The translations under genes and the position numbers were made by a program. Below the pieces are notes generated by a model. The model saw only the letters and a list, made by a program, of their open reading frames with translations, was not told where the DNA came from and did not search any database. Below are positions 22,709 through 25,641 of a stretch of 64,000 nucleotides of DNA, one piece after another. Source of the DNA: Thermodesulfovibrio yellowstonii DSM 11347 (lineage in GTDB: Bacteria > Nitrospirota > Thermodesulfovibrionia > Thermodesulfovibrionales > Thermodesulfovibrionaceae); assembly GCF_000020985.1 (NCBI RefSeq), contig NC_011296.1:62001-126000 (forward strand), written 5' to 3'. Within the stretch, counting starts at the first letter, position 1, and every line of letters begins with the position of its first letter.

Positions 22709-22759
22709 TACCATATTTCGTTAGATTTTAAGGCGTTTGTGGTTCAAGGAGGAATTGAA

Positions 22760-24670
22760 ATGGTAAGATATGACATAACTTTTTTTAGTGATTTTGATAT
22801 TTATCTTTTTAAAGAAGGAAATCACTTCAATGCTTACGAAAAGCTCGGTTCTCATATCATAGAGGTTGATGGGAAAAAAGGAACTTACTTTGCTGTATGG
22901 GCTCCTAATGCAGAAAGAGTCTATGTCATAGGTGATTTCAATGGATGGGAACTTTCGCATCCTCTTTCAGTAAGATGGGATAACTCTGGTATATGGGAAG
23001 GTTTTATTCCAGAAATTGATAAAGGAACAAAATATAAATATTACATAATATCAAAATATGGTTATCACTTGGAAAAAGGAGACCCCTATGCTTTCTTCTG
23101 GGAAATACCTCCTGCCACTGCCTCAATTGTTTGGGATTTAGAATATAAATGGAATGATGAAGAATGGATGAAAAACAGGGTTAAAAGAAATGGGCTTAAC
23201 TGTCCAATATCAATTTATGAGGTTCATCTTGGTTCATGGAGAAGAGTTCCTGAACAGGGAAATAGGTTTTTAACATACAGAGAGCTTGCTGAATGGTTAC
23301 CAAAATATGTAAAAGATATGGGATTTACACATGTTGAATTTTTACCAGTTATGGAGCATCCTTTTTATGGTTCATGGGGATATCAAACAATCGGATATTT
23401 TGCACCAACTTCAAGATATGGCACTCCTCAGGATTTTATGTATCTGATTGATAAGCTTCATCAAAATGAAATAGGAGTAATTCTGGATTGGGTTCCTTCA
23501 CATTTTCCTGATGATGGGCACGGACTTAGTTTTTTTGACGGAACATATCTTTATGAACATCAGGATCCGAAAAAAGGATATCATCCTCACTGGCATAGTT
23601 ATATTTTCAATCACGGAAGAAATGAGATTAGAAATTTTCTTATAAGTTCTGCTGTCTTCTGGCTGGATAAATATCATATTGATGGATTAAGAGTTGATGC
23701 TGTTGCTTCAATGCTTTATCTTGACTACGGAAGAGCAGAAGGAGAATGGATTCCAAATAAATACGGAGGTAAGGAGAATTTAGAAGCAATAGAATTTATA
23801 AAAAGACTTAATGAAACAGTGTATGAAAAATATCCTGATACACAAACTATTGCTGAAGAGTCTACTGCATGGCCTCTTGTTACGCATCCTACATATATTG
23901 GCGGACTTGGATTTGGTATGAAGTGGAATATGGGCTGGATGCATGATACACTTTATTATTTCTCAAAAGATCCTATATACAGAAAATATCATCATGGAGA
24001 GCTTACTTTTAGTATCTGGTATGCCTTTTCTGAAAACTTTGTGCTACCACTTTCCCATGATGAGGTTGTTTATGGAAAAAGTTCTCTTTTGAATAAAATG
24101 CCAGGAGATCAATGGCAAAAGTTTGCAAATCTGAGACTTCTTTTTGGTTATATGTATGCTCATCCCGGGAAAAAACTTCTTTTCATGGGAGGAGAGTTCG
24201 GGCAATGGGATGAATGGTATCATGAGGGAAGTTTACACTGGCATCTTCTTGATTATCCAGAACATCAGGGCATTCAAAAATTGGTAAGGGATTTAAATAA
24301 TCTTTATAAAACTGAGCCAGCTCTTCATGAACTTGATTTTTCACCAGCAGGTTTTGAATGGATTGATTGTAGTGATGCAGACCAGAGTGTTGTAAGCTTT
24401 CTAAGAAAAGCAAAAGATCCGAAAAATGTTATTATAGTTGTGTGTAATTTTACTCCTGTTCCGAGATTTAATTACAGAATTGGAGTTCCCTTTAAAGGTT
24501 ACTGGAGAGAGATTTTAAATAGTGATTCCTGGATTTATGGAGGAACTAATCATGGAAACACTGGAGGAGTTGAGGCAGACCAGATACCTTGTCATGGAAG
24601 ACCTTATTCTTTGTGTCTGACCCTTCCTCCATTGGGAATTCTGTTTCTTAAATGTCAGGGCATAGTGTAA
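22760..24670 (+). CDS. glgB: GlgB, 1,4-alpha-glucan branching enzyme
   Basis: A GH13 enzyme of 636 residues that adds alpha-1,6 branches to glycogen. It has an N-terminal CBM48-like domain ([20 protein letters not shown]). The catalytic barrel has [10 protein letters not shown] (nucleophile Asp), a Glu in IAEESTAWP and [10 protein letters not shown]. The start is ATG 22760, since AAGGAGG lies just upstream; the frame is open 21 bases further but that would bury the ribosome site. No other glycogen gene is adjacent. Confidence 0.95.
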
Positions 24671-24706: not shown

Positions 24707-24804
24707 TGGACATTCCGAGTGTCCTCAATGGGTAAGAGGAATCTCTCTTTGATGCAATAGAAAAAAGGAGGAGATTCCTCGGCTGCTTCCGCAGCCTCGG
24801 AATG
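24707..24804. repeat. Nested palindromic intergenic repeat
   Basis: Between glgB and the methyltransferase, several complementary arms nest within 100 bases. ATTCCGAG (24712-24719) pairs with CTCGGAAT (24796-24803). GAGGAATCTC (24736-24745) pairs with GAGATTCCTC (24771-24780). GGACA (24708-24712) pairs with TGTCC (24720-24724). GGCTGC (24781-24786) pairs with GCAGCC (24791-24796). Such modules, with the string TCGGCTGCTTCCGCAGCC, resemble dispersed REP-like repeats in many genomes. It could fold as a cruciform or act as a terminator after glgB. Only one copy is in this window. Confidence 0.7.
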
Positions 24805-24828
24805 GCAAAAAGAAGTAAGAGGTGATAT

Positions 24829-25641
24829 ATGAAAATAGATAGAGATTATATTCACGGATATACTGACAAAGAAACTATTCGTCTTGAAAATCAGGCTAAT
24901 TGTTTGAATGATCTTCTTCACTATGATTCTGTTTTTCCAGAGAATTCGCTAATTCTTGAAGCTGGATGTGGCGTAGGTGCACAAACTAAGATTGTTGCTT
25001 CAAAAAATCCGAATTCAAAATTCATATCCATTGATATTTCTGAAGATTCATTAAATAAAGCAAGAGCATTAATTCAATCACTTAATATTGATAATGTTGA
25101 GTTTCAAGTCGGAGATATTTTTGATTTACAATTTCCAGATGAGTATTTTGATCACATTTTTATTTGTTTTGTTTTAGAACATCTTGCAACTCCCATTGAG
25201 GCTTTAAAGTCATTAAAAAGAGTATTAAAAAAGGGCGGAAGCATTACTATAATTGAAGGAGATCATGGTTCTGCCTATTTTTATCCTTATAGTCATTACG
25301 CGCAGTTAGCAATAAATGCTCAGATAACATTACAACTAAACATTGGAGGTAATGCTTTAATTGGGAGACAACTTTATCCTCTTTTGACAGAATCTGGTTA
25401 CAAAAATTGTAAAGTGTCTCCAAGAATGGTTTATGTTGATTCAAGTAAACCAAAATTTGTTGAAGGCTTCATAAAAAACACTTTTATAGCTATGATTGAA
25501 GGAATCGGAGAAAAAGCTATAAATAGCTTAATTATTGATGAAGATTCTTTTGATAAAGGAGTTCAAGATTTATATAGAACAACCCAAGCAGATGGAACAT
25601 TTTGCTATACGTTTTTTAAAGGCACTGGATATAATATTTGA
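24829..25641 (+). CDS. SAM-dependent class I methyltransferase
   Basis: A 270-residue protein with the SAM-binding motif LEAGCGVG (residues 43-50), acidic IDIS at the end of strand 2 and the motif-III-like LKSLKRVLKKGG. It belongs to the Methyltransf_11/UbiE-like group; the substrate is unknown. AGAGGTGAT precedes the start. It stands alone after a palindromic repeat. Confidence 0.8.
   Translation: MKIDRDYIHGYTDKETIRLENQANCLNDLLHYDSVFPENSLILEAGCGVGAQTKIVASKNPNSKFISIDISEDSLNKARALIQSLNIDNVEFQVGDIFDLQFPDEYFDHIFICFVLEHLATPIEALKSLKRVLKKGGSITIIEGDHGSAYFYPYSHYAQLAINAQITLQLNIGGNALIGRQLYPLLTESGYKNCKVSPRMVYVDSSKPKFVEGFIKNTFIAMIEGIGEKAINSLIIDEDSFDKGVQDLYRTTQADGTFCYTFFKGTGYNI

What the first reader, a model, noticed from the sequence alone, without database searches (positions are those of the whole stretch)
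24707..24804. Four nested complementary arm pairs in one 100-bp gap
ATTCCGAG/CTCGGAAT encloses GAGGAATCTC/GAGATTCCTC, GGACA/TGTCC and GGCTGC/GCAGCC. Such order looks like a composite REP-like mobile repeat that might be moved by a RAYT-type transposase, and could act as terminator or RNA structure.
Basis: seen in the sequence. Interest (0 to 1): 0.5.

Follow-up and report, generated by a model that had tools for sequence, protein, structure and literature searches.

The report
Widespread REP-like hairpin repeat pair
The structure is one worn copy of a short hairpin DNA repeat that is scattered through this bacterium and through many unrelated bacteria, can sit even inside working genes, and spreads by a means still unknown because no partner transposase was found.

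Summary
The complementary arms are real, but GGACA/TGTCC brackets the left outer arm instead of lying inside it. The 98 bp are two hairpin modules facing each other: tag TGTC, 5-bp stem, GA/GA junction, variable inner hairpin, tail CTC. The window copy has lost both tags. The genome (2,003,803 bp, the published size of Thermodesulfovibrio yellowstonii DSM 11347) holds 96 strict modules; the reversed control gives 0. The outer stem covaries: 62 of 74 distinct modules fully paired, shuffled maximum 33. Fifteen genus relatives carry 0-125. A fixed 25-base form occurs in contigs labelled with many phyla. Orthologous hypF genes show in-frame modules present in some species and absent in others, so the repeat disperses. 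The RAYT reading fails: no Y1 transposase in the host, and 69 Y1 loci in module-bearing genomes are not enriched for modules (3 seen, about 1.7-2.6 expected). The closest kind is the CGTC-tagged REPs, which also lack a known transposase, but the tail differs. 17 modules sit in MITE-like elements with inverted ends. All four copies of one IS110 element sit in modules, and its leader carries matching bridge-RNA-like guides. A new variant of a known kind; the mobiliser is unknown.

The parts
24708..24745 (+). Left hairpin module: decayed tag GGAC (24708-24711), outer stem ATTCC/GGAAT (24712-24716 / 24738-24742), GA (24717-24718) and GA (24736-24737), inner GTGTCC-TCAAT-GGGTAA (24719-24735, worn form of the GCACCC-TCAAT-GGGTGC seen elsewhere in the genome), tail CTC (24743-24745).
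   Evidence: Sequence; arm positions; anatomy of the family and the GCACCC-TCAAT-GGGTGC form.
24746..24770 (.). Spacer between the two modules of the dimer.
   Evidence: Sequence. The 14 tag-outside dimers of strict modules have spacers of 14-27 nt.
24771..24807 (-). Right hairpin module, read on the - strand: decayed tag TGCC (24807-24804), stem ATTCC/GGAAT, GA and GA, inner GGCTGC-GGAA-GCAGCC, tail CTC (24773-24771).
   Evidence: Found as a module at genome 86774-86803; near-identical module in the 92% copy at genome 1982260-1982289.
24712..24803 (.). Outer inverted repeat ATTCCGAG/CTCGGAAT: the first stems of the two facing modules, able to pair with each other as one long branched hairpin.
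22739..24670 (+). Upstream gene: alpha-amylase-family protein, GlgB-like; its stop codon lies 37 bp before the left module. Context only.
   Evidence: ORF; PF02806, PF02922, PF00128 over their cut-offs, PF22019 (GlgB_N) below its cut-off.
24829..25641 (+). Downstream gene: class I methyltransferase; starts 21 bp after the right module. Context only.
   Evidence: ORF; PF13847 and PF08241.

Best explanation
The element is a tag-outside (head-to-head) dimer of a dispersed, non-autonomous hairpin repeat of the REP kind. The unit is TGTC tag, 5-bp outer stem beginning with A, GA/GA junction, freely varying inner hairpin, closing stem, tail CTC. Shown: copy number, conserved hairpin by covariation, sharp unit ends, dimer arrangement, presence/absence at orthologous sites, in-frame copies inside genes, no linkage to Y1 transposases. 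Inferred: the unit moves as a folded single-stranded DNA hairpin recognised by its tag and stem base, by an enzyme acting in trans that is not encoded next to it and is not a Y1/RAYT protein. The window copy has lost both tags and is probably an immobile remnant, lying at a place where gene order differs from the relatives.
For: 96 strict modules in the own genome, reversed pattern 0. Outer stem fully paired in 84 of 96 with at least eight different stem sequences, in 62 of 74 distinct modules, shuffled mean 23.7, maximum 33 in 2000. GA/GA junction in 87 of 119 units found without asking for it. In the 79 modules outside inverted-end pairs, conservation fades beyond about CTGTC and CTCC. Neighbours under 120 bp apart: 14 tag-outside, 6 tag-inside, 1 tandem. 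Genus counts 0 to 125 per genome, 12 of 16 genomes with at least one, control 0. hypF site 2 carries a module in G000, G005, G010, G011 and none in G001, G002, G003, G006, G012, G014, G015; site 1 carries modules in G000, G005, G006, G004 and none in G001, G014, G015, G012 (13 orthologues). Module strand is indifferent to gene strand, 27 against 28. Absence of Y1 from genomes with 96, 125, 96, 26, 163, 21 and 26 modules (G000, G002, G004, G019, G020, G033, G062).
Against: No enzyme was identified and no movement was observed; exact insertion boundaries and any target duplication could not be read from hypF because the empty linkers vary in length and sequence. 17 of 96 modules lie inside inverted-end elements and may have been carried by them. 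The single-stranded DNA form is not distinguished from an RNA form by covariation. Other palindromic repeats with similar folding energy would behave alike. In one genome (G024) two of four Y1 loci do have modules nearby. The window copy itself matches no strict module.
Confidence: 0.6

Rival explanations
1. The modules spread mainly as cargo of other mobile DNA: MITE-like elements with ends GAGRCTGTTCAA, plus recombination between copies. Solo modules such as the window's are what remains after the carrier's ends decayed.
For: 17 end pairs of 123-276 bp (two enlarged to about 1.48 kb by an IS110 insert) enclose modules; the ends pattern has 65 matches against 8 for the control. Short direct repeats of 7-8 bp flank several, e.g. 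AAAAATA, AAAAGTA, TATAAAA, TGAAAAT. The 92% copy of the window element lies in a worn version of such an element (my reading).
Against: 79 of 96 strict modules lie outside such pairs and conservation ends at the module. The ends were not found beside the window copy (strict pattern; one search lists none in the window). No transposase with these ends was found; ORFs near single ends were only looked at by eye. hypF modules carry no such ends (sequence read).
Confidence: 0.2
2. The element is moved by a RAYT/Y1 transposase, now lost from this genome.
For: REP-like form; Y1 genes in 36 of 50 module-bearing genomes; in G024, 2 of 4 Y1 loci have module dimers within the fetched flanks, one about 45 bp after a Y1 stop codon.
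Against: No Y1 gene in the own genome or in 14 of 16 genus genomes. Module-rich genomes without Y1. 3 of 69 Y1 loci with a module against about 1.7-2.6 expected (densities from strict counts while the scan was looser, so the expectation is if anything low). Tag is not GTAG.
Confidence: 0.07
3. The element mainly works as an RNA structure after glgB: a terminator or 3'-end stabiliser kept for gene expression.
For: It lies 37 bp after the glgB-like stop codon between two genes on one strand and folds well as RNA.
Against: No terminator-like site on the + strand. No strand preference in unidirectional gaps (27/28), few copies in convergent gaps (8 of 96, crude gene caller, background sample of only 9 gaps). 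None of the glgB loci fetched from relatives shows a module after glgB; downstream sequence could be read in 10 of 11.
Confidence: 0.1
4. The modules are landing sites kept and moved by an RNA-guided IS110 element.
For: All four copies of one IS110 element in the genome sit at GTCAT/TTCCGA of a module. Its 248-nt leader holds TGTCAT and TCGGAAT in the order and on opposite sides of one predicted internal loop (centroid fold); 6 of 20000 shuffles give such a pair.
Against: This IS110 is absent from the other genus genomes except a 57% identical fragment in G004, although G002 has 125 modules. Of 19 IS110-domain loci in 9 of 21 other genomes, one (L357) has modules on both sides, none shown to be a split module. 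It explains use of modules as targets, not their origin.
Confidence: 0.03

Closest known systems
CGTC-tagged REP superfamily (Di Nocera et al. 2013, PMC3733652; abstract, passages and sections 6 and 15 seen)
   Same: Unpaired tag at one end (CGTC, often TGTC), stem starting with A-T, tag-outside dimers prevail, copies inside genes, no linked transposase.
   Different: Tail CTC instead of the CCA consensus; short outer stem with a GA/GA junction and an inner hairpin of very variable length; outer stem sequences not limited to AT (27 of 96 begin AC, counted); occurs in Nitrospirota and contigs of many other phyla. The published consensus sequences are in a figure that is not held, so a letter-by-letter comparison was not possible.
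GTAG REPs and RAYT transposases (PMC3733652 passages; PMC3686654, PMC6006769, PMC8266576 seen only as search listings)
   Same: Short palindromic dispersed units in dimers.
   Different: No GTAG tag and no Y1/RAYT gene linked.
Rickettsia palindromic elements RPE-4/RPE-6 (as cited in PMC3733652)
   Same: In-frame units inside protein-coding genes.
   Different: Sequence not compared here.
IS621/IS110 insertion into REPs (PMC1525189 and PMC11208160, passages seen)
   Same: An IS110-family element inserts at one fixed point of a palindromic repeat; guide-like leader RNA.
   Different: Target here is the tag and stem base of the TGTC module; guide reading is by sequence and fold only, untested.
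RepRanger catalogue (PMC12306157, one passage and first part of the discussion seen)
   Same: Counts 873 REPs and 527 RITs in T. yellowstonii DSM 11347.
   Different: A count by a palindrome finder; in what I saw no family of this anatomy is described.

Membership tests
GTAG REP / RAYT system | GTAG tag at one end | tested here: not met
   Tag is T/C-GTC: base before GTC is T in 95 of 119 units; GTAG is not part of the unit.
GTAG REP / RAYT system | RAYT (Y1) gene in the genome or flanked by units | tested here: not met
   PF01797 0 in own genome, control rings in 5 of 14 named genomes; 3 of 69 Y1 loci with modules, about 1.7-2.6 expected.
CGTC REP superfamily | Tag CGTC, TGTC or CCTC | tested here: met
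   Met for the family (T 95 and C 4 of 119 in the own genome; T 74 and C 13 of 95 GA/GA units in 80 loci of other genomes). Not met by the window copy (GGAC and TGCC).
CGTC REP superfamily | Stem starts with complementary A-T in positions 1 and 2 almost invariably | tested here: inconclusive
   69 of 96 strict modules begin AT, 27 begin AC (counted).
CGTC REP superfamily | Stem 8-9 bp, loop 4-5 | tested here: inconclusive
   5-bp outer stem, GA/GA, then inner hairpins of variable length; whether the paper counts through the GA/GA is not clear from the text.
CGTC REP superfamily | Tail mostly fitting CCA | tested here: not met
CGTC REP superfamily | Tag-outside dimers predominate | tested here: met
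   14 tag-outside, 6 tag-inside, 1 tandem under 120 bp apart, 95 strict modules.
CGTC REP superfamily | No linked transposase | tested here: met
   Y1 tests above; in 80 loci no transposase recurs beside modules (three recurrent ORF groups, named by my reading only).
MITE | Terminal inverted repeats and target duplication | tested here: not met
   Not met by the window copy. 17 other places have such ends, several with 7-8 bp direct repeats.
Intrinsic terminator of the upstream gene | GC-rich hairpin followed by a T run on the gene's strand | tested here: not met
   No + strand site; one weak - strand site.

The most novel reading that the evidence does not exclude
The unit is one pan-bacterial superfamily of mobile DNA hairpins whose identity lies in structure (TGTC/CGTC tag, short covarying stem, GA/GA junction, free inner hairpin) and which is copied by a still undescribed, widely distributed enzyme that is never encoded beside it, possibly a housekeeping replication or repair activity acting on single-stranded hairpins. 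That would be the missing mobiliser of the CGTC-type REPs. IS110 elements then parasitise it through RNA guides.
Probability: 0.25. Interest if true: 0.75.

Novelty: new variant of a known kind. Interest (0 to 1): 0.45.

Why it matters
CGTC-type REPs were described in 2013 as lacking a transposase. Here a close relative is traced in a small, complete genome with no Y1 enzyme, in a genus where copy number runs from 0 to 125, with filled and empty sites in one gene (hypF). That makes the question of how such repeats move testable by comparing a few genomes or strains. The IS110 element offers a natural, readable example of guides that match a repeat.

Tried and rejected
RAYT mobilisation: rejected. 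Rfam families: three tRNAs in the window and nothing at the element (gathering threshold). Terminator. Orthologous empty site at the window locus: not available, because none of the glgB loci of relatives has the methyltransferase gene or a module after glgB. A recurrent neighbour gene in 80 loci of other genomes: 1896 ORFs compared, three groups in four or more loci, none that I recognise as a transposase. General IS110 association: not found. Replichore bias: left half + 24, - 16; right half + 27, - 29, assuming an origin near coordinate 1 that I did not test.

Paper searches by sequence string: 20 of 50 hits listed; 30 of 30 listed; 25 of 86 listed; by organism. None of the listed titles is about such a repeat. 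As lists were partial and figures are not held, I do not claim that the family is unpublished.

Error made and mended: one search read loci of minus-strand hits as reverse complements; searches use the right orientation. One search was printed under no assumption on strand.

Full report
What is in the sequence. GGACA/TGTCC is not inside the outer pair; it brackets the left outer arm, so it is an alternative to it. The other pairs are compatible. Both strands fold better than shuffles, as RNA and as DNA. The element lies 37 bp after a GlgB-like gene and 21 bp before a methyltransferase gene on the same strand.

It is a repeat. The window is bases 62001-126000 of a 2,003,803-bp genome. That is the published size of Thermodesulfovibrio yellowstonii DSM 11347 (paper read whole); the identity rests on size alone. 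The 116-bp query has 59 matches there at E<=10, one of them 92% identical at 1982255-1982352.

The unit. Looking over the copies the 98 bp resolve into two modules facing each other. A strict pattern, GTCAYYCYGA, 4-26 bases, GARGRRTCTC, has 96 matches in the genome and 0 for the reversed control (one match overlaps another). None of the 96 lies in the window: the window modules have tags GGAC and TGCC instead of TGTC, and the left inner stem is worn. The outer stem is fully paired in 84 of 96. Among 74 distinct modules it is 62, against a mean of 23.7 and a maximum of 33 when the 3' halves are shuffled 2000 times. Stems include ATTCC, ACCCT, ATTCT, ACCCC, ATCCC and ACTCT with their complements. 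The GA/GA next to the stem was not imposed and is seen in 87 of 119 units. The inner hairpins differ freely. Conservation fades just outside CTGTC and CTCC in the 79 modules outside inverted-end pairs. The commonest neighbour arrangement has the tags outside (14, against 6 and 1).

Distribution. Of 16 genus genomes 12 have a strict module, from 1 to 125 per genome; the control is 0 in all 16. By my arithmetic about 0.1 would be expected by chance at even base composition. Record titles include Nitrospirota, Chloroflexota, Acidobacteriota, Bacteroidota, Omnitrophota, Planctomycetes, Bacillota, Verrucomicrobiota, Nitrospinota, Gemmatimonadetes, Armatimonadetes, Patescibacteria and others, and one Nanoarchaeota record. 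Most are metagenome bins, so single hits may be misbinned. In 50 of these genomes the strict pattern occurs in 39, up to 360 times, control 0; the isolate Silvibacterium bohemicum (G055) has 49.

Dispersal. My simple gene caller puts 11 of 96 modules in ORFs; three of these are in one doubtful short ORF and two are near the start of their ORF. Six lie in genes that profiles name: hypF (two), the CODH/ACS alpha/beta subunit, nuoC, a CobN-like chelatase and a heptosyltransferase (the CobN-like ORF is cut by the end of its locus). Thirteen hypF orthologues were aligned. At the second site G000, G005, G010 and G011 carry a module and G001, G002, G003, G006, G012, G014 and G015 do not; G008 is unclear, and the G004 gene is split at this point. 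At the first site G000, G005, G006 and G004 carry modules, G010 and G011 worn ones, G001, G014, G015 and G012 none; G002, G003 and G008 are unclear. The empty linkers vary, so exact borders cannot be read. At the window locus no relative helps: none of the glgB loci fetched has the methyltransferase or a module after glgB.

No Y1 partner. PF01797 is absent from the own genome and from 14 of 16 in the genus. In G012 and G015 it stands beside TnpB-like ORFs without modules (TnpB by my reading). Among the 50 module-bearing genomes 36 have Y1 genes, but G019, G020, G033 and G062, with 26, 163, 21 and 26 modules, have none. I looked at 69 distinct Y1 loci: three hold a tagged module (L274, L288, and L285/L326, which are one place), against 1.65 or 2.59 expected from density, depending on whether dimers count once. 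Two of the three are in G024, where a dimer starts about 45 bp after a Y1 stop codon; this is the only hint for the RAYT reading.

Other mobile DNA using the modules. Seventeen modules lie in elements with ends GAGRCTGTTCAA, 123-276 bp long, several between 7-8 bp direct repeats. One IS110 element (PF01548, PF02371) has four copies in the genome. All four are split into a module at GTCAT/TTCCGA; two of them lie in a repeated 51-kb segment, so at least three insertions are independent. In its leader, TGTCAT and TCGGAAT stand on the two sides of one internal loop in the centroid fold. This is the arrangement described for the target loop of bridge RNAs (PMC11208160, passages): one guide like the top strand of the left target, one complementary to the right target. 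6 of 20000 shuffles hold such a pair. A donor-like pair, GGAACAT and ACGAT, follows. Nineteen other IS110-domain loci in 9 of 21 genomes show no such pattern, so this is a trait of this element and not of the repeat.

Reading. The best explanation is a non-autonomous hairpin repeat like the CGTC REPs of Di Nocera et al. (PMC3733652), moved in trans by an unknown enzyme. It works like them. I do not file it as a member of their four families, because the tail differs and the stem could not be compared letter by letter. An RNA role after glgB is not supported by what I tested but is not excluded.

Noticed in passing
L016 246-1510 (genome 1598112 onward); also genome 1546909, 326067 and 814850 (-): IS110-family element, four copies, each inserted at the same point of a TGTC module; its 248-nt leader holds candidate bridge-RNA target guides TGTCAT / TCGGAAT and donor guides GGAACAT / ACGAT.
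   Followed up: partly
genome G000:C1:1496940-1599568: Module, IS110 and MITE-like copies recur at a spacing of 51,203 bp, which suggests a 51-kb tandem duplication bounded by these repeats, perhaps by recombination between them. The full segments were not compared.
   Followed up: partly
genome G000, 17 end pairs, e.g. 1523411-1523634: MITE-like family with ends GAGRCTGTTCAA/TTGAACAGYCTC and 7-8 bp flanking direct repeats; no transposase with these ends was found.
   Followed up: partly
L327 (hypF, genome 799123-801615): The linkers of hypF are repeated landing places for modules in different species, always with the frame kept open.
   Followed up: partly
L274 (G024:C24): A Y1 protein of about 212 aa with a module dimer just after its stop codon and another dimer about 1.3 kb upstream; worth a look as a possible linked pair.
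   Followed up: partly
L357 (G045:C344): An IS110-domain gene with modules at about 350 bp before and 1.1 kb after the matched domain; borders of the element not determined.
   Followed up: no
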